Shown: positions 14,019 to 47,472 of the stretch, piece by piece
Numbering within the stretch: the stretch's first letter is position 1
Layout of the letters: the number at the start of each line of letters is the position of its first letter
Assembly: GCA_003116975.1 (NCBI GenBank)
Contig: BGKB01000082.1
Location: 194,275 to 258,274, forward strand
DNA: 64,000 nt
Direction of reading: 5' to 3'
Source of the DNA: Aurantiochytrium sp. KH105
Lineage: Eukaryota; Sar; Bigyra; Thraustochytrida; Thraustochytriidae
Made by a program: the position numbers and the translations under genes
The notes under the pieces: model-generated
Told to the model about the DNA's origin: nothing
What the model saw: only the letters and a program-made list of their open reading frames with translations
Databases searched by the model: none

Positions 14019-17000
14019 CTACATGGCCTCGGCCTTGTCTTCCTGAATCTCGGAAAGCTTGACGGGGTCTGCGAGACCCCACATGGTGAGGAGCACGTTG
14101 ACCTTGGAAAGATCCGTCGAGTACAGATGGGCAAACATGGGCTTCGACAGCGAGTGAACCGCAATCTGGGCCAGAGTTTCGACAAAAGACCCGTACGAGA
14201 GCGAGCTCACGTTGGACTTGCGCGTCACCGACGTGTACAGGTCACGAATCTCCTTGCGCGAGATAAATGTCGGTGTCACATCATAGTCTTGGGTAAGCTG
14301 GATCATGTCGGAGAGCTGCACAGCGTTCGTGCCGCCGAGCTGCTTGTAGAACTCAAAGACTCTCGAAAGGACCACGGCGTGTTTGTCAAACAAGTTGATC
14401 ATCTGCTTGCTGAGCAGCGGCGCCCCTTCGCGCTGCGACTGCTTTTGCGGGTGTTCCTTGCCAAGACTCGACGCCTTGTGGACGCCAGGTTCGCCGGGCC
14501 TCGCGTTTTTCCGACTTCCAGGGATAGCACGCTGTTGCGGATCATTCTCGCGGCCTAGCGCGCTCGGCCGTCTGCGACGCGAATGCTGTGAGGCGCCCTC
14601 CAAATCGTCATAGGCGCCTTCCGGGTGACCCGCGCCCCTGGAGGCGCGCGAGGTGGCGCGAGCTTGCTCCACGAGACTTTCCGAGTCGGCTTGCACGCTC
14701 TGACGGATGCTTGCCATGTGGCGCACCTTTTCGTCTAAAAGCTGACGCGACTCGTCGATTTCGCGGCGCGCACGGAGGAGGTCCTCCTTTTCGCGCTCAA
14801 TTTCCCGGGCCCTCTCCTCGAGGGATTCGCGCACGAGCGGGGCCTCGTCGGCGTGCGGCGACCACGGCCCATTGCTGGCGGCCCCGCCGCCGTATGAGCG
14901 CGCCGTCGGGCCGCCTCCGTACATGGACGAGCCCACCGAGGCGGACGAAGAGGCAGCAAACCCATGGTACGGCTCGTCCTGGGGCCCTCCCATGGGCGGC
15001 GCGGGGTTGAAGATGGGGAAATAGCTCGAGACGGGAGCATACTGCTGCGTGAGTGCCTGAGACGGCTGCGACGCCGCGGATGAGGCTGACGGGGCGCGCT
15101 GTTGTCGGCTCGGGCCGTTCGGGGCGCCGTTACTGTGCATTTCGATGACACCGCTATTGGATCCCGTCTGCACATGCGAAGAAGCACGAGTGCCGTCGCG
15201 TGGTTCCGAGCCAGCAGTGGAACCGACAATGGACAAGGGACCCCCGCTCGTGCCATTGGGCACGCCGTTTTCGATGGCGGGCGGCGCATGCTCTTCCGGG
15301 CCAGCGCCCGGGAGTCGCAAGAGTCCGCTTTCCTTGAGCATTTTCGAAAAGGTAATGAACGGATTCACGTCATTCTGTGGGTGACGTCCTTCAGCGCGCT
15401 CGCGGAGCAGCTTGTTAAACTCTGATGCCGTGTAGGCGGCCGCAATGTCCTCGGCACTCAGCGAAGCTGCGACACCCGGTCGAAAGGGGCTCCCCTGGAT
15501 GTCCCGAAGCGGCTCGATGTTGCTGCGACCGTCGTCGAGTTGTACGCGGACTTCAGCACTAAGATCTTCGCCGCCCGCCTGCTTGTTAATGAGGTCCGTG
15601 CGCGACATCTTCACCGTGTACGTGACGCGAAGCGTGCCGTCACCGTTGTCCTTGACGTCCTGCAGCTCGAGCGGCTCGCCCAGCGTCACAGTGAACTCGC
15701 GTCCGCCATCGAGTGTGACGGGCTCGTCAAACTCATTACGTGCCACAATTGTGAACTCGTTGGTTTGGTCAATTACGGCGCAAAGGAGACCAAGACCGTC
15801 TGCCGTGCAGTGGCTCGTGGCCACGGGAGCGGGCAGGATCTTGGGGTGGTACGGTGATCCGTAAATATCGTATCCGGCGAGCATGATGGTCAGCTCGTAC
15901 TCGCCAAGACGGGAGGGCACGTATTCACAGGAAAAGGTGCCGTCCTGATTATCGACCACATTCAGGTCATAGTGAAGATCCTGGCTCTCGAGAACGACGG
16001 ATGGCATTTGCCGCACAATTTCGAGAGGCTCGCCAAACTCATCGCGAGCCTGGATGGTGAAATGAGAAGGAATTCCAATTTGGCCTTCATGGAGACCGCG
16101 GCCGTAGGCTGTCCAGTTTTGCGCCTCGTCCCAGCGACGCGTTGCCTCCTCGGGGTCGATTTCGGGCGCTACGCTCGGGTCCTTGACGGTCGGGTTCGTC
16201 ATGGAGTGGTCCTCGCGCGCCTGCTCCAAAAGTGCCAGCTTCAAGACCCATTCGCTGGCCTCCTCTGGCGACGTGGCGGCAAATTCGTACGTGCGCTGCC
16301 GTGATGGGTCGTGCGGATTACGCTCAACGAGGTGAAATTCGTTTTCCCAACGGATGGCAGAATTTTTGTGGCGACGCTCGGGGACAGGATGGATAATCTG
16401 CGTGTAATGCAGATCGATTTGGCCCTTGAGGGATTGATCCTTGTAGTACAGGAGCTTGACGCGGCGTTTGTCCATGCGAAAGTAGCGGCGGTTCCAATTT
16501 TTGCGGAATTCTCCGCGTTTCCAAAGCTCGCCCTCGATGACACATTCGTCGGGAATCTTGAATTTGGGGATGCGACCCTTTCTCTTGCGCTTGGTGGTCT
16601 TTTTCCCGCGAGCCTCTTCGTCCTCGCCTTCTTCCCGCGCCCTTTGCATTTCAACCGTCTGGTTCACCTCCATGTCCATTTCTTCGAGTTTCATTTGCAA
16701 CTCGTCAAAGTCCTGGTTCAGCTCATAGTCATCATAATCGAGGTCAGCCATGGGGTCGCCATCCTGGTAGAGGTCAGGACGCGCGGAGGCCGTAAACCTG
16801 CGTTGCCGACTAGGAGCGTTCCTCCACTCGGCAGGGACGGGGTCCTCCTCTTCCTCTTCGGTGTCGTCTTGGCCGCGTCGGCCTCGCGCGCCCTGACGTG
16901 CGCCTCTTCCTCGGGCAGAAGCAGCGCGACTGGCGCCGCCGACGCTGTTGCGACCGAAGGAAGCTGCGCCGCCGCCAAGCGGACTCGCGCCGCCAAAGCG

Positions 17001-17438
17001 TGCTGACGTGCGCCTCGCAAAGGACTCCTCGCCCGCGCGGCCGAAGCCGCCTGGAGTCCGTGGTTTTTCCGAGGATGTGCCCCCACGAAGGTCGGGGCGT
17101 CGCATGCTGCCGGACTGCTTGGCGGATCCTTCGAAGCCGCCTCCGCGACGAGCACGTTCCGAGGCGAACTTGGCGGGAAGCTTTTGCTGCGGCGGCGTCT
17201 GCGGGCCTCCGCGAGGGCTACCGCCAAAATTGCGCGCGCTATTGCCTCCGGCGCGCTGTCCATGTGGAGACTGTTGTTGTTGTTGCTGTTGCTGCTGTTG
17301 CTGCTGCTGCTGCTGAGGATTACTGTTTTGTTGGTGCTGTTGAAACCCTTGCTGCTCGCCACCGGGCGCAGACTCCTCATCGGGGCCGCCACGCGCGCTG
17401 CTCTTGCCGCGCTTGAAGGGGCTCTTCAGGAACGCCAT
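14019..17438 (-). CDS. PH domain and filamin-repeat protein with C-terminal EF-hand-like module
   Basis: An 1139-residue multidomain protein. The basic, Gly/Arg-rich, disordered N terminus contains a poly-Gln tract (about residues 40-57). A PH domain spans about 300-404 (GELWKRGEFRKNWNRRYFRMD). Two Ig-like filamin repeats follow, about 443-534 and 544-651, each with a DNGDGT or DNQDGTF turn and closing in SPYHP or SPFRP. A second disordered Ser/Gly region leads to a coiled coil (about 876-915). The C-terminal about 130 residues, from the QMINLFDKHAVVLSRVFEFYKQLGG block, look like a degenerate EF-hand-type helical module seen with filamin repeats in protists. The role is probably a membrane-linked actin or cytoskeletal scaffold: PH for phosphoinositides, filamin repeats for partners. 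No calponin-homology actin-binding domain is present, unlike canonical filamins. Confidence 0.9.
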   Translation of the reverse strand: MAFLKSPFKRGKSSARGGPDEESAPGGEQQGFQQHQQNSNPQQQQQQQQQQQQQQQSPHGQRAGGNSARNFGGSPRGGPQTPPQQKLPAKFASERARRGGGFEGSAKQSGSMRRPDLRGGTSSEKPRTPGGFGRAGEESFARRTSARFGGASPLGGGAASFGRNSVGGASRAASARGRGARQGARGRRGQDDTEEEEEDPVPAEWRNAPSRQRRFTASARPDLYQDGDPMADLDYDDYELNQDFDELQMKLEEMDMEVNQTVEMQRAREEGEDEEARGKKTTKRKRKGRIPKFKIPDECVIEGELWKRGEFRKNWNRRYFRMDKRRVKLLYYKDQSLKGQIDLHYTQIIHPVPERRHKNSAIRWENEFHLVERNPHDPSRQRTYEFAATSPEEASEWVLKLALLEQAREDHSMTNPTVKDPSVAPEIDPEEATRRWDEAQNWTAYGRGLHEGQIGIPSHFTIQARDEFGEPLEIVRQMPSVVLESQDLHYDLNVVDNQDGTFSCEYVPSRLGEYELTIMLAGYDIYGSPYHPKILPAPVATSHCTADGLGLLCAVIDQTNEFTIVARNEFDEPVTLDGGREFTVTLGEPLELQDVKDNGDGTLRVTYTVKMSRTDLINKQAGGEDLSAEVRVQLDDGRSNIEPLRDIQGSPFRPGVAASLSAEDIAAAYTASEFNKLLRERAEGRHPQNDVNPFITFSKMLKESGLLRLPGAGPEEHAPPAIENGVPNGTSGGPLSIVGSTAGSEPRDGTRASSHVQTGSNSGVIEMHSNGAPNGPSRQQRAPSASSAASQPSQALTQQYAPVSSYFPIFNPAPPMGGPQDEPYHGFAASSSASVGSSMYGGGPTARSYGGGAASNGPWSPHADEAPLVRESLEERAREIEREKEDLLRARREIDESRQLLDEKVRHMASIRQSVQADSESLVEQARATSRASRGAGHPEGAYDDLEGASQHSRRRRPSALGRENDPQQRAIPGSRKNARPGEPGVHKASSLGKEHPQKQSQREGAPLLSKQMINLFDKHAVVLSRVFEFYKQLGGTNAVQLSDMIQLTQDYDVTPTFISRKEIRDLYTSVTRKSNVSSLSYGSFVETLAQIAVHSLSKPMFAHLYSTDLSKVNVLLTMWGLADPVKLSEIQEDKAEAM

Positions 17439-39516: not shown

Positions 39517-41322
39517 CTAGAGTGCCACCGAAATGGTTACACGGCTGCCAGTGGCACTGGTGGCTGGCCGGCTGCCCGTGAATGGCTCCCTAGACGAATC
39601 GTCGGTCGGCCACAATGGGTCCAAGTCCTGGTCGTGTGCTTCACTCCGACCGGCAGCGGAAGGACAGTATGGCCACCATGCCGGGCCGACTTGTTCAACG
39701 AATTTGGAGACAGGCGCCTTGTGACAATCACGCGCAGTGGTCCGGAATGTTTTGAGCTCCTGGAAGAGCAGCGCCTTGTAGCGCGCGAGCTCCCGCGCGA
39801 AGCGTGGGTCCTGGGCAAGGTCCTTGCGCTCTTGCGGGTCCGAGGTCAGCTCAAAGAGGCAGAAGCCACCGCCGCACGGTCTCGAGCCAAAGCCGCCACC
39901 CATGCGCTCCCCGCTGCCGGCGGCGCCGTCCGCAGCCGCGGCTGCGGCCGGCTGCAGTTGCGGCAGCTCGCGGGCCTCTGCCTTCGCTTCAAGTTTGGAC
40001 CACCCGTCCGGAAATCCCGCCGAGTCAACAATTATCTTCCACTGACGCCCGTCTGGGGCGTCATAGAGCATACCAAAACCCGAATTCCCGTGGTCGGAAG
40101 TATTTCCCAGAGCCACAGAGGTACGGACAGGCGACCTGTGAGAAGAACCACCATGGTCGACTTCATCGTTGGGGGCAGCTGAAAGCTGCGACCAGTGTGA
40201 GAGTGAGTCCAAGGGCACGGCAGAATGCATCGAAAGCGACGCCGCCTCTGCGAGCGTGGCCACCCAGTCCGCAATGTGCATGAGACCGCTGTACGTGCCT
40301 CGCCGTTTGATCCCGTAGCCGGCGAGCACGCAGGTCCCGCGCACGCCGCCCTCATATAGAGAGTGCTTCCCACCACGAAAGGGCGTGTTCCGGCTGCCAA
40401 CGGCGTCACTTGTCTCAACGGGCCCGCCGTTGTCTGTTGTGATGACCACGAGAGTCTCGTCGCCGCCCATTCCGTTTCGCTCGAGAGCTCGGGTAATATT
40501 GCCGATCCCGTAGTCGACGGCCGCGAGCATCCCGGCGAACTGGCGCCGTTGCCCTGGGCCCAGCGTCTCGAGATACGGAGACACGTACTCTTGGGGCACC
40601 TGCGTGCCCTGCCAGCCGCCGTAGTGCACGCCTTGATACGCAACGAACAGAAAGAGAGGCGTCTTTCTCCCCGAGGACCCATGGCGATCGATGATCTTGA
40701 CCGCTCTTTCTGTAAAGTATTCTGTGGAGTATTGCAGTTGCGCCTCTTGTGCAACGCGAAAGCAAGACTCTGCATTGCAGCGAGGCGCGGTGCCCTCGAG
40801 AATGTGAAACCAGCTGTGCCCGGGATCATACGAGCGGCCAAGAAAGTAGTCCCCGCCACCGTTGATTAGACCCAAGTACGAGTTGAACCCACGATACGTT
40901 GGCAGGTACTCCCACGTATGATGACCCAGGTGCCACTTGCCCACCATGTGCGTGGCGTACCCGGCACTCTGGAATCTCTCGCTGAGGAGCGTATTGTCGA
41001 GTTCGAGACCGAGACCTGACGCTGGCGCGAGCCAATTATGCAATCCATGGTGATGTGAGAACCGACCGCTCATGAGCGCGGCGCGGCTCGGCACGCACGC
41101 CGTGTGCGTGTAGTAGCGGCCGAGCTCCAGACCTCTTTGCCGTATCGCGTCAATCTCTGGCGTGCGGATCTGGTCACCGTTGCGAAAGCCAACATCCGCC
41201 CACCCCAGATCGTCAACCACAATCATGACCACGTTTGGTCTCGTCTGCTCCGCCGTTGCGACCGCCACCAGGGCTGCGGCCCATGCCCATGCCCACGCCC
41301 ACGCCCACGCCCGCGCCATCAT
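39517..41322 (-). CDS. Secreted arylsulfatase (arylsulfatase B/I-like, formylglycine type)
   Basis: A type I sulfatase, about 601 residues from the ATG at 41322 (a longer frame to 41406 exists). A signal peptide contains an Ala-Trp dipeptide repeat followed by AAALVAVATAEQ. The mature enzyme starts with RPNVVMIVVDDLGWADVGF, which supplies the metal-binding Asp pair. The CVPSR motif (Cys 76 from this start) is the site converted to formylglycine, and the second signature follows at THMVGKWHLG. Further metal and substrate motifs include TTDNGG. It should hydrolyse sulfate esters on glycans in a secretory, lysosomal or extracellular compartment. It needs a formylglycine-generating enzyme encoded elsewhere. 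It diverges from a sulfotransferase gene, so sulfate addition and removal sit side by side. Confidence 0.93.
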   Translation of the reverse strand: MMARAWAWAWAWAWAAALVAVATAEQTRPNVVMIVVDDLGWADVGFRNGDQIRTPEIDAIRQRGLELGRYYTHTACVPSRAALMSGRFSHHHGLHNWLAPASGLGLELDNTLLSERFQSAGYATHMVGKWHLGHHTWEYLPTYRGFNSYLGLINGGGDYFLGRSYDPGHSWFHILEGTAPRCNAESCFRVAQEAQLQYSTEYFTERAVKIIDRHGSSGRKTPLFLFVAYQGVHYGGWQGTQVPQEYVSPYLETLGPGQRRQFAGMLAAVDYGIGNITRALERNGMGGDETLVVITTDNGGPVETSDAVGSRNTPFRGGKHSLYEGGVRGTCVLAGYGIKRRGTYSGLMHIADWVATLAEAASLSMHSAVPLDSLSHWSQLSAAPNDEVDHGGSSHRSPVRTSVALGNTSDHGNSGFGMLYDAPDGRQWKIIVDSAGFPDGWSKLEAKAEARELPQLQPAAAAAADGAAGSGERMGGGFGSRPCGGGFCLFELTSDPQERKDLAQDPRFARELARYKALLFQELKTFRTTARDCHKAPVSKFVEQVGPAWWPYCPSAAGRSEAHDQDLDPLWPTDDSSREPFTGSRPATSATGSRVTISVAL

Positions 41323-41987
41323 CGTCTCCGCTCGCGCCCAGTCCCAATCCCGTTTTGCCGCGTCCCACTGACCGCCGCTTCCTCCGCCCCTCTGCAGCAC
41401 TAGCATACTACTCGCCTGCCTGTCTTTCAGGTTGCGCTCCGGCCCGCCATACTAACGCTAGTGAGCGCCGCGGCGTGCACGCCCCGCCACGCTTCCTCCT
41501 TTTGTCGCTCACCATTTCCGTGCCGAACAGAGCTTTCGCAGGCACTACCAAGAGAGAGCGCAGGGTCGGAGAAGTAGTCGGCCGCCAGGGCAGCCAGCGA
41601 GGCCCGTGACCGCCTCGCGTCTTGCGACTGCGACGCGGCGCGCGGGAAGGGAGGGAGGGAGGGAGGGAGGGAGGGAAGGAGGGAAGGAGAGCGGGAATGG
41701 TCGGCGCGTCTGTACTGAACGGCCCCAAGCGCACCTGTGGGACGAATGTTGATCGTCAGAATTGGGAGGATAAGGTATAGTATTATTCCGCACAGCGAGG
41801 CGGCAACGACCGAGCATCAAAACTGCAACGCGAGGCAACGCAAAGACGCTCATCCTCGGGCAAGGCTGAAGGCGTCTGCGAGTACGAGAGCAAACGGTGT
41901 CTTGGCGGGACGGGGCTGGAAAGCTGTCTGTACGCGGGCGTGCTGGTATCAGGCCGCGCAAGAGAGCAAACTTGGAAAGAATCGCCA
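41323..41987. promoter_or_regulatory. Divergent arylsulfatase/sulfotransferase intergenic region
   Basis: About 0.66 kb between the two starts. It contains a (GGGA)n tract at about 41651-41686 and an AT-rich element GGTATAGTATTATTCC near 41772-41787 that could serve as a core promoter for the plus-strand gene. No GCGCAAGTG element was seen. Confidence 0.45.
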
Positions 41988-43274
41988 ATGGGGCTAAAAA
42001 ACAACATGCTTCTCTCGCAGAGCCCAGCTTCGTCACCGAGAAAGGCGCAGTACCTGACGACGAAGCAGTGCATCCTGGCGCTCGCAGTACTCTTCTGCGC
42101 GATGTCATGCGTCCTTGTTGGGGCCATAGTCTTCTTTCTCGGACCACAAGAGATCAGCTCCCTGTCAATGAATTTGCCGCTGGGAAAGACCAATATTCTT
42201 GACGAGAGCACTTCCTCGACACAAGTCAATGATCCGGAGGACGTTGCTTTCCTGCAACGCACGTCTCAGATGATCCTGCAGCGTCGGTGTCCCGCAAATG
42301 CGCACCTTGAATTCGTCTTTCCTCACGTTCCCAAGGCTGGCGGCCGAAGTATCGAGACCACCTTCAACGCCGTCGACTTTTTGAGGACGGAAGCACGACA
42401 TCATCACGTTTCGCTCGAGCCCAGGTCCCGAACGCACAATTTCACACTTCAAAATGGTCATCGCGACTTTGCGCAGCTCGCTCGAGATCTACGGTGCAAT
42501 TCCCTGACGTGCGAAGTCACTTCGGAAAACTTTTGCAGGCGCTGGATTTACGCCGTCCGGGAGCCCGTCGCCCGCTTTGTTTCGGCATTCTACACATCGA
42601 CCGGGCGGAGCGACGGTGGGCACTTTTTGTGCGCGGTGAACTCAACCGCGAAACGCATCATCGCAGCAGACCCCGACTTATCAATTGAAGACTGGGCTCG
42701 TCTCCCACGCGAGGAACGCGATAAGTGCCGAGGAGTCTTCAACGTCCATGTCAATTTTCTTGCGCCTGAGCTGCGCAACGACCCCAAGAGGCAGCTCGAG
42801 CTTGCCAAGCAAAGACTTACCTCTGTTATGAGTTGGACACTCATTGTCGAGGAGCTCGCAGAATCTTTTGAGCTCTTCTCGTATATCTTTGGCTCAGACC
42901 TCGTTCATCATGTGCCCGCCTTTAACTACAACAAGTACGAGAAGAAACTGAGCGCGCACGCACAAAAGGTCATCGAAGAACACAACCTGTACGACATCGA
43001 GCTCTACAAACACGCTCTGGAACACCACCGCATCATGGTAGACCTGATGCGCACTGACAGCTCTGACCCATTCTACAACAAAACCCCATTCCGCTGCGAC
43101 AAGGATGTCGTTTGCTGGGACAAGCTTGCCGGACGCGGTTCCACGTGGGATGTCGCGCGAGCACCAGCTTGGCAGAAGCACTTTCCCAGCAAAGGGCAGG
43201 CGAAGACGCGTCAGCTTTGCGCGCCAAGACGCGGGTGTTGGCGAGAGGATCTCGCGGACTCCAAATTTACATGA
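41988..43274 (+). CDS. Golgi-type carbohydrate sulfotransferase (type II membrane protein)
   Basis: A PAPS-dependent sulfotransferase of about 428 residues from the ATG at 41988; the frame also has an earlier possible start near 41940. A cytosolic head and a single membrane anchor (about residues 27-52) precede a lumenal catalytic domain. The 5'-phosphosulfate-binding loop is FPHVPKAGGRSIE and the 3'-phosphate-binding segment is WIYAVREPVARFVSAFY, with Arg and Ser in the usual places. Such enzymes transfer sulfate to hydroxyls of glycans in the Golgi. Substrate is unknown; sulfated wall or extracellular polysaccharide is an inference from the adjacent arylsulfatase. The cysteine-rich C terminus (CAPRRGCW) may form disulfides. 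Confidence 0.88.
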   Translation: MGLKNNMLLSQSPASSPRKAQYLTTKQCILALAVLFCAMSCVLVGAIVFFLGPQEISSLSMNLPLGKTNILDESTSSTQVNDPEDVAFLQRTSQMILQRRCPANAHLEFVFPHVPKAGGRSIETTFNAVDFLRTEARHHHVSLEPRSRTHNFTLQNGHRDFAQLARDLRCNSLTCEVTSENFCRRWIYAVREPVARFVSAFYTSTGRSDGGHFLCAVNSTAKRIIAADPDLSIEDWARLPREERDKCRGVFNVHVNFLAPELRNDPKRQLELAKQRLTSVMSWTLIVEELAESFELFSYIFGSDLVHHVPAFNYNKYEKKLSAHAQKVIEEHNLYDIELYKHALEHHRIMVDLMRTDSSDPFYNKTPFRCDKDVVCWDKLAGRGSTWDVARAPAWQKHFPSKGQAKTRQLCAPRRGCWREDLADSKFT

Positions 43275-43728
43275 ATGAATGAACGAATGAAAGGTTAATT
43301 GATTGATAGCCGTGCAAGCATGCATGCATGTGTTGGGGGGGGGGGGGGGGGGGGGGGGGAGTTTCGGGGCCAGTACAATGCAGATTTGTTATTCAACCAT
43401 GTTATTGTGTATGTCATGAGAGGAGAGAGCCGAAAGTCAAAATGAAAGAAAAGTGATCTTGTGATCTCTCTTGCTCTTTACTCTTGGTCATGTTGAAGAG
43501 AGAGGAATAAACAACTTTTCTCTGTCCTTGTCCTCGTCCCTTTTTTTTTTGAAAAATATCCTTGTCCGTATGCGTGCGCAGTCCACAGCAGAAAAAAAAA
43601 AAAGATAGGAGGAAAGGAAAGAACTGGGAGAGCAAACTAACACGGAAGAAACGTTAAGATGACCGCACGAAACTCCGAGGACGAGCACACTGCATCAGCA
43701 AAGAACCTTGCGCGCGACTTTTGCGATA
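43275..43728. repeat. Convergent spacer with poly(G) run of 25 (43335-43359)
   Basis: Between the sulfotransferase and EDEM 3' ends. A GAAT/GATT-type short repeat and GCATGCATGCATG precede an uninterrupted run of 25 G at 43335-43359. A run of about 10 T lies near 43541 and a run of about 12 A near 43591. No gene is supported. Confidence 0.85.
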
Positions 43729-46700
43729 CTACAAGAGCGTTGAGTCTACCTGACCAGGATTCGGACTTGCCAAGGGTTGATGAATGAGTGAGATCGTCCA
43801 GGCATTCGGCGAACTCTTCGTGACTGAAAAGCCCCAAGAGTCGAGGACCATTCCGATGAGCTCCTGACCCGTCCACACTGCCCAGGGATAGCCCGACGTC
43901 TCGAGACGCGTGCGCGACGTCTCAATACGCACGTGCACGACATCGTCTACATCTTTCGCTGCATCCGACTTACTCTCCGGCACGTCATTTTCGTCTACAT
44001 CTACCTCCTCGTCATACTCTTCCAGGTCGCGATCCTGCTGCTTGGTGTTACGACGGCGCCCAGCCTGCTGACGAATGCGGTGATAAAGAATGTCCCCATC
44101 ACGTTTTGACAACATGAACGTGGGCAATTTGGCCCGCGTCGAAGAGAAAAGCGCCGCCATGGCCTTGCCAAAAAGATGGTCCTGTGCCATGCCCACCATG
44201 TAGAAAAGACCTTCCTCGTCTTTATTCTGTGCGATAAGGAGTGCGAGCGCCCCGGCCTTTTCGGCAAAGAGCGCCTTCTGCTCGAACATGCAGGTTCCAC
44301 GCCGCACGAGGACGACACGATTTGCAACGAGTTCTGGGGGGTAGGCTGCTGCAGAACATCCTTCGGGTTCGACGGCGAGGACTACAGAGCCCTCGACCAC
44401 TTGTGGAACGGCTCCGGGGCCAAACTCGGAAAAGCTGCACGCCGTAGGGGCCTGCAGCCGCGACAATGGCGCGCGCGCGTGCTCCATCGTGGACCATGGG
44501 CTCGGCCTTGGCGCGCACGTTGGCCCTGGCCCAGTCGAGATCTCGATGGAACATCGAAGAGCAAAGCCTGGTTTCTTCTGGTTCACATACAGAAACGAAG
44601 AATGCATTGGCTCGCCCTCCATGACTTCTATGGCAGCCAAATCCGTCTCCAGACTTGAGATGGTCACTGCCGAGTTACTAAATTCGTGGTAAAGGTGAAA
44701 GCCTGCTTGGAGCGGTTGGACTTCGTACACTGCGTCTTCCCCCGGACCAAGACGCACTGTTTGCACATTGGCAAAATCCTCAGCGTCCGCATCTTCTTCC
44801 TCCCCCGCAAAACCGAGATCTTTCCGACCATAGTCGGTGTCGTCATTGTCATCTTCAGCAGCGTCAATGTATACATCGACACCGTCTCTTTGTTCCAGGC
44901 TGCTACTGCGTGCGCTGCCGCCGGCGTCCTCCCCCGAGGCGAGCCTGCTCGCGCGCTTGGCGGCCTTAGAAAGGTAGCCGAATCGCCTGGGTTTGCGAAG
45001 GGCCGGGTTTGCGCCATAGTACGAGGAGACCTGGGAGATGTCCTGGTCATTGCGATCGATTGCGGGGCACATCCATTCCGAGCTCATCGCCTCGTCAGTA
45101 AGAGAAGGGACGCCCCACAGACCTTTGACCTGTTCGCGCAGCGCTGCACGCGCGGAGTTGCTGCGCGGTTTGCGAGAAAATGCAAAACCCATCTCCCGGG
45201 CCTTGCGCTGAAAGTCGGCACGCACAGGGATGAGATGCGCTTCGGTAGAAAACACATAGTTTGCGCCATTGTCCTCACGAAATGGACTTTCCTCGTCAAA
45301 AAGCAAATAGAGGTACTTGAGCAGCTCCGAAAGGAAAAACGAGGGCATGGTGTCGTGTAGTCGCTCCGTTTTAATGTCCTTTATACTCGCGTAGCCGCAC
45401 TCGACGAAGCAGGCCTGCTCGAGTCCGCGTACCATGTCCCGGCCGGCAACAAGCCAGGCTGGATCTTGCGTCGTAGTGCTCATGTAAAAAACACTCTCTG
45501 CCAGCTCGGGTCGCAAGGGGTAGCCGCGACGAGTGCCTCCGACGAGAGGCTCCCAGCGATCAATGCCAAAGTCCTCTGGAGTGAAGCCAAACTCATTCCA
45601 GACGCGCAAGAAGGCATTGATGGTTCTGCTTGCAGCTTCGGCATCGCCGACAAGAGTCTGCATGCCCGGCCAAAAGGCTTGCAGATTGTTGAACTGGCGT
45701 CGCAGGGTGCTGCCGCGGTGCATGTTGACCTCAATATACCACGTGTCCCCAACACGCAGTCGCCGCACGGCCGCTGCGTAGAGCTTTTGGAACATGACAA
45801 AGGCCTCCTCGTCGCCAAAGGCAATGTAGTGCTTGATGTAATATTCGTAGAGCGAATCAATGTTGGACCCGATCCCGGCTGTCGGTTCGGTCCACCTGCC
45901 AGTCTGCACGTCGATGTGGCGCCCCACCAGATCGAGCTTGGACCGGTGGTCAAAGATGGCTTTGAGTGCATCTCGCGCGGCAATGCCGTAGCGCGCGTCG
46001 TCCGTGAGCACGGAAAGCAAGCCAAACTCGAGCGAGAGCGAGCCGGCCGCTGCTGTGCACGCTTCCGTGGTTTCGCCGCGTGGCACACCGTGGCGCAGGT
46101 TCACAGTTCCGAACGGGATCGAGGTTGTGGTTTCAAAGGCAGGAAGGAGTCTGTCGCCGAGGTCACGGGCGAGACGCAAGAGATCGCCATCGTAGTCAGG
46201 CATGATGGCCAGATCCGGGTCGCTGGCCAACAAGTGAGCGGAAAGCAAGCCTCCAAGAATACGAATCGTGGTCTCAAAGACAGAGACAGTCTGATCGAGG
46301 TCAAAGTCGGCATGGCTCGAGACAACGCGCACGGCACGCGCAAATTCCGTGTAGTTGCCCACAATGGCAAGCATGTCAAGGGAGTCGATCAAAGTGAGCA
46401 TGTTGCCAGCAGTGAGACCGAAGCGCTCGCCGCGGCACGAGAGCGGTTTGAGCTCGTCGAGAGGAAAGGCGTTCTCCATGTAGGCATTGTAACCATGGTA
46501 GAACATGCCGCGGACCTGCTCGCGGAGATTGATGCGCTCAGTTTCGGAGATGTGCATACGCTTATTTCCAGCGTTGCGTTTCTGGTGGCCAGGAGGCGCC
46601 CCCTGTGTTGCTTGCTTTTTCTGAAGGCCGCCAATTCCACCGGCCTCTGAGCGCGACTTTGTCGTCGATTGGTCAGTCCCAAGATTGTCGATGTCGACGC

Positions 46701-47472
46701 CATAATCATCATCGCTGATTTCCTTTTCTTCGTCATTGTCATTGGACTCGCGTCGAATAGTCCATCGATCTTTCCGTTTGGCGCCCACTGCAGTACCCTC
46801 ATTCTCGCGATCCTCGAGCACGCTACACTCTTGGCTTTCTTCTTCCCAGAGCCGTGGCAACATGCATCCTATGGGGGAGCAGACGGACATAGCGTAGGCG
46901 CAAGTAGATACCTCGGAAACCGTGAGAATGTGCGCAAGCTCGGAAGTTGGGATGGAAGGCGCGGCAGCCAGATCTTCGTCCATATGCTTGGCTTGGGCAG
47001 CGTGTCTGCCGCAGCAGCGGATCCTGACAATAGTAGACCGCTTCGTCCCAGCTTGCTCGCAGGGCTGGCCGCCTTCGAATTTGTAGGCAATGTAGGTCGG
47101 CCGATTATTCTTCCAGCCGCCCAAGGTGGGCTCGCCGCCGTTGGCCGCGAGCGTGCCTGCCGACCAGTCGACGGATCGAGGGCCCGTTCTGGACTCCATG
47201 TGGAACTGGCGCACCTCTTTGCCATGGCACCATGCGTACTGCCACCATCCGCTACCGCTGGACTCCACGCAGACGCCCTCGAGCGGGCGCAGGAGGTCCT
47301 CGACCCGGGCGGCGACAACCTGGCCCACGGCGGCTCGCGGGTCTCCCGCATCCTCGGTCTCTGCGCGAGCTGCCGTCGTCGCCGCCAGCTGCAGCAGGAC
47401 GGCCGCCGCCAGGACCGCCGCCGCCAGCCGCGCCAGGACCGCCGGTCCTGGCAGCCGCGCGGGCCCCGCCAT
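43729..47472 (-). CDS. EDEM-like GH47 alpha-mannosidase with N-terminal MRH lectin domain and C-terminal PA domain
   Basis: A 1247-residue ER-lumenal protein. The signal peptide covers residues 1 to about 36. Residues about 66-205 form an MRH (mannose-6-phosphate receptor homology) lectin domain like OS-9/XTP3-B: GWWQYAWCHGKEVRQFH, VRIRCC and SEVSTCAYAM. The four sugar-contacting residues are all present (Gln 89, Arg 150, Glu 187, Tyr 193). After an acidic linker, about 312-790 is the GH47 domain of the EDEM branch, with REQVRGMFYHGYNAYMENAFP, GIGSNIDSLYEYYIKHY, YPLRPELAES and VFSTEAHLIP. About 1005-1110 is a protease-associated domain (VVLVRRGTCMFEQKA), as in EDEM3. EDEMs trim mannose from misfolded glycoproteins, and MRH lectins then read the exposed alpha-1,6-mannose. 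No C-terminal KDEL-like signal is seen. One uninterrupted frame supports a true fusion. Confidence 0.93.
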   Translation of the reverse strand: MAGPARLPGPAVLARLAAAVLAAAVLLQLAATTAARAETEDAGDPRAAVGQVVAARVEDLLRPLEGVCVESSGSGWWQYAWCHGKEVRQFHMESRTGPRSVDWSAGTLAANGGEPTLGGWKNNRPTYIAYKFEGGQPCEQAGTKRSTIVRIRCCGRHAAQAKHMDEDLAAAPSIPTSELAHILTVSEVSTCAYAMSVCSPIGCMLPRLWEEESQECSVLEDRENEGTAVGAKRKDRWTIRRESNDNDEEKEISDDDYGVDIDNLGTDQSTTKSRSEAGGIGGLQKKQATQGAPPGHQKRNAGNKRMHISETERINLREQVRGMFYHGYNAYMENAFPLDELKPLSCRGERFGLTAGNMLTLIDSLDMLAIVGNYTEFARAVRVVSSHADFDLDQTVSVFETTIRILGGLLSAHLLASDPDLAIMPDYDGDLLRLARDLGDRLLPAFETTTSIPFGTVNLRHGVPRGETTEACTAAAGSLSLEFGLLSVLTDDARYGIAARDALKAIFDHRSKLDLVGRHIDVQTGRWTEPTAGIGSNIDSLYEYYIKHYIAFGDEEAFVMFQKLYAAAVRRLRVGDTWYIEVNMHRGSTLRRQFNNLQAFWPGMQTLVGDAEAASRTINAFLRVWNEFGFTPEDFGIDRWEPLVGGTRRGYPLRPELAESVFYMSTTTQDPAWLVAGRDMVRGLEQACFVECGYASIKDIKTERLHDTMPSFFLSELLKYLYLLFDEESPFREDNGANYVFSTEAHLIPVRADFQRKAREMGFAFSRKPRSNSARAALREQVKGLWGVPSLTDEAMSSEWMCPAIDRNDQDISQVSSYYGANPALRKPRRFGYLSKAAKRASRLASGEDAGGSARSSSLEQRDGVDVYIDAAEDDNDDTDYGRKDLGFAGEEEDADAEDFANVQTVRLGPGEDAVYEVQPLQAGFHLYHEFSNSAVTISSLETDLAAIEVMEGEPMHSSFLYVNQKKPGFALRCSIEISTGPGPTCAPRPSPWSTMEHARAPLSRLQAPTACSFSEFGPGAVPQVVEGSVVLAVEPEGCSAAAYPPELVANRVVLVRRGTCMFEQKALFAEKAGALALLIAQNKDEEGLFYMVGMAQDHLFGKAMAALFSSTRAKLPTFMLSKRDGDILYHRIRQQAGRRRNTKQQDRDLEEYDEEVDVDENDVPESKSDAAKDVDDVVHVRIETSRTRLETSGYPWAVWTGQELIGMVLDSWGFSVTKSSPNAWTISLIHQPLASPNPGQVDSTLL

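What the first reader, a model, noticed from the sequence alone, without database searches (positions are those of the whole stretch)
43729..47472. MRH lectin, GH47 EDEM mannosidase and PA domain in one polypeptide
In animals and fungi the mannosidase that marks misfolded glycoproteins (EDEM/Htm1) and the lectin that reads the mark (OS-9/Yos9, XTP3-B) are separate proteins. Here the N terminus has an MRH domain with paired cysteines and all four mannose-contacting residues (Gln 89, Arg 150, Glu 187, Tyr 193, the last two six residues apart as in OS-9). It is followed in the same frame by a complete EDEM-type GH47 domain and a PA domain. This would let one molecule trim and then retain its own product. 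I am not aware of a described protein with this order.
Basis: partly seen in the sequence, partly recalled or inferred. Interest (0 to 1): 0.85.

Follow-up and report, generated by a model that had tools for sequence, protein, structure and literature searches.

The report
Sugar-trimming enzyme fused to its reader
A single gene of an unnamed eukaryote joins, in one protein, the kind of enzyme that trims sugars on badly folded proteins and the kind of domain that reads the trimmed sugar; in the systems studied so far these are separate proteins, and what the joined protein does is untested.

Summary
Window 47472→43729 (minus strand) is one frame of 1247 aa: hydrophobic leader, MRH lectin domain (Pfam E 1e-8), GH47 mannosidase (9e-108) and PA domain (1.2e-14). 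The allele-like copy on contig C94 has the same order (98% identity), with purifying selection in frame in all six modules tested, linker included. This argues against assembly chimaera, pseudogene or two genes; no transcripts were available. One correction: the sugar-contacting arginine is Arg145, not Arg150. With Gln89, Glu187, Tyr193, WW 76-77 and six canonical cysteines the lectin site looks intact and OS-9-like. The GH47 keeps its catalytic positions and groups with yeast Mnl1. The genome also encodes separate tandem-MRH proteins and a second EDEM-like gene, so the fusion adds to ordinary machinery. Best reading: an EDEM3-like mannosidase with a built-in lectin for its own α1,6-mannose product; glycan docking or anchoring are not excluded. 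Ten searches of open papers listed no description of such a fusion. Its spread among other eukaryotes could not be tested. New variant of a known kind.

The parts
43729..47472 (-). Whole coding frame, 1247 aa plus stop, no intron needed
   Evidence: same frame in the C94 copy
47362..47472 (-). Probable signal peptide, residues 1-37 (boundary is my estimate)
   Evidence: hydropathy peak 2.43 at residues 16-30; no signal-peptide program was run
46858..47277 (-). MRH lectin domain, residues 66-205: WW 76-77, Gln89, Arg145, Glu187, Tyr193; cysteines 68, 82, 138, 153, 191, 203; extra cysteines 154 and 198
   Evidence: Pfam PF07915; PDB matches; alignment
46528..46857 (-). Charged linker, residues 206-315, without a hydrophobic stretch that could be a second signal peptide
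   Evidence: highest 15-residue mean -0.48 in 205-316; frame under selection (residues 218-315)
45187..46527 (-). GH47 EDEM-type alpha-1,2-mannosidase domain, residues 316-762: Glu400, Asp539, Glu656, Thr743; cysteines 346 and 692
   Evidence: Pfam; Mnl1 and mannosidase IA alignments; tree
44398..45186 (-). Region between GH47 and PA, residues 763-1025, in the place of the EDEM3 intermediate domain
   Evidence: position only; dN/dS 0.31 for 763-930 and no nonsynonymous change in 931-1025
44086..44397 (-). PA domain, residues 1026-1129
   Evidence: Pfam PF02225 1.2e-14; NCBIfam stretches of M36 peptidases, below cut-off
43732..44085 (-). C-terminal tail with an acidic stretch, residues 1130-1247, no KDEL-like end

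Best explanation
It is an EDEM3-like ER mannosidase that carries its own OS-9-type lectin domain at the N terminus. Shown by sequence: one frame, one N-terminal hydrophobic leader, GH47 catalytic positions kept, MRH sugar-binding positions kept including the WW pair. Inferred: the GH47 domain removes the terminal alpha-1,2-mannose of the C (D3) branch from misfolded glycoproteins, and the MRH domain, joined by a charged linker of about 110 residues, binds the alpha-1,6-mannose so exposed, on the same glycan or on another one of the same client. That would hold the marked client on the enzyme (longer dwell, further trimming) before hand-over to the separate tandem-MRH lectins and the degradation machinery.
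For: Three domains in one frame. Same fusion in the allele-like copy, with purifying selection in the six modules tested. WW plus Gln89, Arg145, Glu187, Tyr193 and six cysteines; the double tryptophan has been suggested to give OS-9 its alpha-1,6-mannose specificity (PMC3332353, passage), and the OS-9 pocket rejects the untrimmed branch, so it reads the EDEM product (PMC6272264, passages). Of 16 GH47 sequences of the PDB listed, yeast Mnl1 scores best (1.1e-79) and its Cys65 and Cys445 face Cys346 and Cys692; in the tree the window gene shares a 100/99 branch with Mnl1. The only leader-like stretch lies ahead of the MRH, so a GH47 made separately from this frame would lack one. ALG3 and four pairs of PF03901 mannosyltransferase genes are present, as expected if the branch carrying that mannose is made. 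EDEM3 itself has been proposed to act as mannosidase and lectin and to prolong ER retention (PMC7926307, passage).
Against: No measured binding, activity or localisation. MRH identity to the ten rows aligned is only 25-30%, the MRH tree has no supported fork, and the single-sequence model is unusable (pLDDT 33.8). The role of XTP3-B, the best PDB match of the MRH, is itself called controversial (PMC6272264). A weak, sub-threshold match to the glucosidase II beta model PRKCSH_1 exists (0.0018). No KDEL-type end, while the other EDEM-like gene has RDEL in one of its two copies. Separate tandem-MRH proteins exist, so a built-in reader is not needed for the pathway.
Confidence: 0.5

Rival explanations
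1. Glycan-docking aid, as in glucosidase II: the MRH domain grips another mannose branch or a second glycan of the client to present the substrate and speed trimming; it is a targeting module of the enzyme, not a reader of its product.
For: [quoted passage not shown] PRKCSH_1, the glucosidase II beta model, matches at 0.0018, below cut-off.
Against: The window MRH has the WW pair suggested to specify alpha-1,6-mannose; its best PDB matches are XTP3-B (1.5e-12) and OS-9 (3.2e-5), and glucosidase II beta is not among the 22 sequences listed at E up to 10.
Confidence: 0.25
2. Anchor: the MRH domain binds N-glycans on a partner such as a SEL1L/Hrd3 homologue or a chaperone and so keeps an EDEM without KDEL in the ER and near the retrotranslocation complex.
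For: No KDEL-like end, as in human XTP3-B (PMC7835635, passage). OS-9 binding to SEL1L presumably through SEL1L glycans is proposed (PMC6272264).
Against: Evidence on MRH-dependent SEL1L binding conflicts (PMC7835635; PMC3332353). EDEM1 and EDEM2 lack KDEL too (PMC7835635) and have no MRH (recalled). No SEL1L homologue was looked for here.
Confidence: 0.15
3. The protein has left ERAD: it works in another secretory compartment or outside the cell, with MRH and GH47 both acting on mannose-rich glycoproteins there.
For: No KDEL-like end; a sulfatase, a sulfotransferase and a glycosyltransferase are predicted in the window.
Against: Closest to EDEM-type GH47 by score and tree, with the Cys346/Cys692 pair. 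Neighbours in a eukaryotic genome say little about function.
Confidence: 0.07
4. Gene-model artefact: two genes or a chimaeric assembly that read as one frame.
For: No transcript data were available here.
Against: No stop in 1247 codons, same frame and order in the copy on contig C94, selection in the linker (p 0.019), no second leader-like stretch in the linker.
Confidence: 0.03

Closest known systems
[quoted passage not shown]
   Same: Signal peptide, GH47, intermediate region, PA domain, acidic C-terminal stretch in the same order (module order from PMC7926307, passages)
   Different: Human EDEM3 ends in KDEL and no MRH is described in it (passages); the window protein has an N-terminal MRH and no KDEL-like end
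Yeast Mnl1/Htm1
   Same: Best PDB match of the GH47 domain (8zpw, 1.1e-79); catalytic positions and Cys65/Cys445 aligned
   Different: Works with Pdi1 and uses a C-terminal domain to recognise misfolded proteins (PMC12170172, passages); its product is read by the separate lectin Yos9 (PMC7835635, PMC6272264, passages)
OS-9 / XTP3-B (ERLEC1) / Yos9 lectins
   Same: MRH with contact residues and six cysteines; WW as in OS-9 and the second MRH of XTP3-B
   Different: They are lectins without a GH47 domain; here the MRH is the N-terminal part of a mannosidase
Glucosidase II (alpha catalytic subunit, beta subunit with MRH)
   Same: A glycan-trimming enzyme coupled to an MRH lectin
   Different: GH31 hydrolase, two subunits, MRH of different specificity (PMC6272264, passages)

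Membership tests
EDEM subfamily of GH47 | Full-length GH47 domain over the curated cut-off | tested here: met
   PF01532 361.6 bits against 22.9, profile 1-455
EDEM subfamily of GH47 | Groups with EDEMs, not with mannosidase I or bacterial GH47 | tested here: met
   14-row tree, one side of a 100/99 branch holds the two window copies, the two C83/C85 copies, Mnl1 and 29te. Thin: Mnl1 is the only outside row named an EDEM; 29te is named alpha-1,2-mannosidase and I took it as EDEM-type; long branches were flagged
EDEM subfamily of GH47 | Catalytic acidic residues and calcium threonine | tested here: met
   Glu400, Asp539, Glu656, Thr743 aligned in Mnl1 and mannosidase IA and invariant in the six rows; the roles of these positions are recalled
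EDEM subfamily of GH47 | Mannosidase activity on misfolded glycoproteins in the ER | not testable with these tools
   needs expression and assay
EDEM3-like | PA domain after GH47 | tested here: met
   PF02225 1.2e-14 at 1026-1129
EDEM3-like | C-terminal KDEL | tested here: not met
   ends STLL, other copy SKLL
MRH lectin of OS-9/XTP3-B type | Gln, Arg, Glu, Tyr contact residues | tested here: met
   Gln89, Arg145, Glu187, Tyr193
MRH lectin of OS-9/XTP3-B type | Double tryptophan | tested here: met
   Trp76-Trp77
MRH lectin of OS-9/XTP3-B type | Six canonical cysteines | tested here: met
   68, 82, 138, 153, 191, 203
MRH lectin of OS-9/XTP3-B type | Clade with OS-9/XTP3-B MRH domains | tested here: inconclusive
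   no starred fork in the 11-row tree
MRH lectin of OS-9/XTP3-B type | Binding of exposed alpha-1,6-mannose | not testable with these tools
   needs glycan array
Glucosidase II beta | Its C-terminal model PRKCSH_1 over the cut-off | tested here: not met
   18.4 bits against 23, E 0.0018

The most novel reading that the evidence does not exclude
A one-polypeptide writer-reader of the ER degradation code: the mannosidase makes the alpha-1,6-mannose mark and its own lectin domain captures it, so that trimming and commitment to degradation are coupled in one molecule, beside an ordinary set of separate EDEM and MRH lectins.
Probability: 0.35. Interest if true: 0.78.

Novelty: new variant of a known kind. 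Interest (0 to 1): 0.56.

Why it matters
How EDEM trimming is linked to reading of the trimmed glycan is, to my knowledge, an open point of glycoprotein degradation, and EDEMs themselves were long debated as enzyme or lectin (PMC7926307, passage). A natural fusion of both functions is a ready-made tool to test whether the two steps act on one client in one encounter, and, by the Rosetta-stone argument, hints that EDEMs and MRH lectins cooperate directly.

Tried and rejected
Rejected: assembly chimaera and pseudogene (second copy with the same frame and selection). Rejected: two neighbouring genes (no second leader-like stretch in the linker, linker under selection in frame). Rejected: Arg150 as the contact arginine. 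Rejected: the fusion as the only MRH protein of the genome.

Led nowhere: scans of IMG/VR with the protein (1 stretch matched, 0 relatives) and with the six-row GH47 alignment (110 stretches, 0 relatives). The one scan of GTDB species genomes gave 4 loci of 42 stretches, all bacterial GH47; tblastn of the MRH against those 4 found nothing better than E 5.2. AlphaFold2 of residues 37-222 from a single sequence: mean pLDDT 33.8, so no fold search was made. MRH tree of 11 rows: no supported fork; two extra cysteines (154, 198) shared, among these rows, only with the first MRH of the C21 protein hint at kinship but are no test. NCBIfam gave three M36 peptidase models over the PA stretch, all below cut-off. 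Sequons: 1 against 4.29 in shuffles, P 0.048; the two tandem-MRH proteins gave 0.062 and 0.61, the other EDEM-like protein 0.97 and the mannosidase I-like protein 0.49, with no correction for five tests: not relied on. Eukaryotic genomes other than the window's own are not held, so the spread of the fusion was not tested; the metagenome cap was 0 and no such scan was made.
Full report
What is there. The minus-strand frame from 47472 to 43729 is open for 1247 codons. Pfam finds three domains over their cut-offs in one protein: PRKCSH/MRH at 66-138 (1e-8), GH47 at 323-750 (9e-108, whole profile) and PA at 1026-1129 (1.2e-14); a fourth family, PRKCSH_1, is below its cut-off (0.0018, residues 180-209). 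A hydrophobic N terminus (residues 16-30, mean hydropathy 2.43) looks like a signal peptide; no signal-peptide program was run.

Is it one gene? The genome (76.0 Mb, 367 contigs; the window is C82:194275-258274) looks like two haplotypes: the 6 GH47 matches are 3 pairs. The partner of the window gene lies on C94, beside a copy of the same neighbouring gene, a predicted sulfotransferase. The two proteins are 98% identical. Over the gene there are 54.5 synonymous and 27.5 nonsynonymous changes (dN/dS 0.15). By module: MRH 0 nonsynonymous in 352 sites against 3 synonymous in 104; linker (218-315) 0.27; GH47 0.03; 763-930 0.31; PA 0.10; tail 0.24. One-sided Fisher tests on rounded counts give p 0.012 (MRH), 0.019 (linker), 1e-10 (GH47), 0.006 (763-930), 0.003 (PA), 0.012 (tail) and 3e-16 for the whole; no correction for several tests was made. 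The two length differences, both in the C-terminal tail, keep the frame. The linker has no stretch that could be a second signal peptide (best 15-residue mean -0.48), so a GH47 product begun inside the frame would probably not enter the ER. No transcripts were available.

The lectin domain. In the PDB the MRH region matches human XTP3-B (1.5e-12) and OS-9 (3.2e-5). Of the 22 sequences listed at E up to 10, 6 are MRH lectins (XTP3-B, OS-9, Yos9 type), 16 are unrelated (15 fibrinogens and a regulator), and none is glucosidase II beta. Aligned with 10 other MRH domains, five of them from this genome, it keeps WW (76-77), Gln89, Arg145, Glu187, Tyr193 and the six cysteines. OS-9 Arg188 and XTP3-B Arg428 (numbers from PMC7835635, passage; positions counted in the alignments) face Arg145, so Arg150 in the finding is a slip. 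Identities to the ten rows are 25-30%, and the tree does not resolve which MRH is its nearest kin. Two extra cysteines (154, 198) recur, among the rows aligned, only in the first MRH of the C21 protein.

The enzyme domain. The best of 16 PDB matches is yeast Mnl1 (1.1e-79), then 29te, an alpha-1,2-mannosidase (4.5e-67), a bacterial enzyme (3.7e-50), mannosidase IA (1.9e-49) and ER mannosidase I (2.2e-46). Glu400, Asp539, Glu656 and Thr743 are aligned in Mnl1 and mannosidase IA and invariant in the six GH47 rows of this genome; their catalytic and calcium roles are recalled. Cys346 and Cys692 face Mnl1 Cys65 and Cys445. In a 14-row tree the window gene, the other EDEM-like gene, Mnl1 and 29te form one side of a branch with 100/99 support; the program flags long branches, and Mnl1 is the only outside row named an EDEM. 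The order GH47, intermediate region, PA, acidic tail is that of EDEM3 (PMC7926307, passages).

The rest of the machinery. The 11 MRH matches in the genome fall on two tandem-MRH genes, each in two copies (C259/C235 and C21/C68), the window gene in two copies, and one single-MRH gene (C26). The search looked exon by exon and is a lower bound: it missed the MRH of a glucosidase II beta candidate at C26:163055, found with PF12999. The other EDEM-like gene (C83/C85) has no MRH, and Pfam finds no PA in it at E 0.01. It ends RDEL on C83, while the C85 copy stops earlier by an in-frame TGA. A mannosidase I-like gene is on C84/C158. ALG3 is present in two copies, as are four pairs of PF03901 matches, one pair (C17/C36) with a TGA inside the match. 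One of these genes (C96) matches a solved mannosyltransferase, 9s6t (6.3e-57), and looks ALG12-like by a recalled motif. So the glycan branch that EDEM and OS-9 act on is probably made, and the fusion is an addition to ordinary parts.

How it probably works. OS-9 binds the D3-branch mannoses and rejects the branch while the outer alpha-1,2-mannose remains (PMC6272264, passages); the double tryptophan was suggested to give this specificity (PMC3332353, passage). EDEM removes that mannose. An EDEM with an OS-9-type MRH should therefore bind its own product. That the two domains act on one client is inference. The main rival is that the MRH docks the glycan to speed trimming, as in glucosidase II; a third is anchoring to glycans of a partner. 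A glycan array with an Arg145 mutant would separate the first two.

What is known. The six papers read in passages (PMC12170172, PMC7835635, PMC6272441, PMC7926307, PMC6272264, PMC3332353) treat mannosidase and MRH lectin as separate proteins; PMC7926307 proposes that EDEM3 acts as mannosidase and lectin, and the word MRH does not occur in its main text. Ten searches of the open PMC library listed no paper whose title or shown abstract describes such a fusion. Apart from the six papers I saw listings only; subscription papers and protein-database architectures could not be checked, and the 2007 survey of protist quality-control factors is not held.

Spread. No relative was found in IMG/VR, and the 4 bacterial GH47 loci found show no MRH-like stretch by tblastn. 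Eukaryotic genomes are not held here, so whether the fusion is confined to this species is open. Pieces of a PfaA-type fatty-acid synthase (930 and 456 bits in separate frames, neither over the cut-off of 1010) fit a thraustochytrid, but the same model also rings below its cut-off in 11 of 14 control genomes, so this is a hint only.

Verdict. A real, selected, apparently intact three-domain protein with an order I did not find described: a new variant of EDEM. The function is a testable inference.

Noticed in passing
L016 2480-4987 and L021 2320-4686 (C83/C85): The second EDEM-like gene ends in RDEL on C83, but the C85 copy has an in-frame TGA that removes the last 47 residues including RDEL: a possible allele without the ER retrieval signal.
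   Followed up: partly
C72:311448-314912, C155, C290:39390-42377, C61 (loci L041-L044): PfaA-type polyunsaturated fatty-acid synthase pieces lie in two separate frames on different contigs, as if the subunit were split; two copies each.
   Followed up: no
window 39517-43274: A sulfatase (6.7e-43) and a sulfotransferase (weak Pfam match, 2.3e-5, just over its cut-off) are predicted side by side next to the fusion gene.
   Followed up: no
window 43335-43359: A run of 25 G in the gap between the sulfotransferase gene and the fusion gene.
   Followed up: no
L018 and L019 (C21, C259): Two different tandem-MRH proteins, both with WW in the second MRH; the C21 protein has a long acidic N-terminal region.
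   Followed up: partly
window 14019-17438: A predicted protein with a PH domain (2e-12) followed by filamin repeats (4.7e-27).
   Followed up: no
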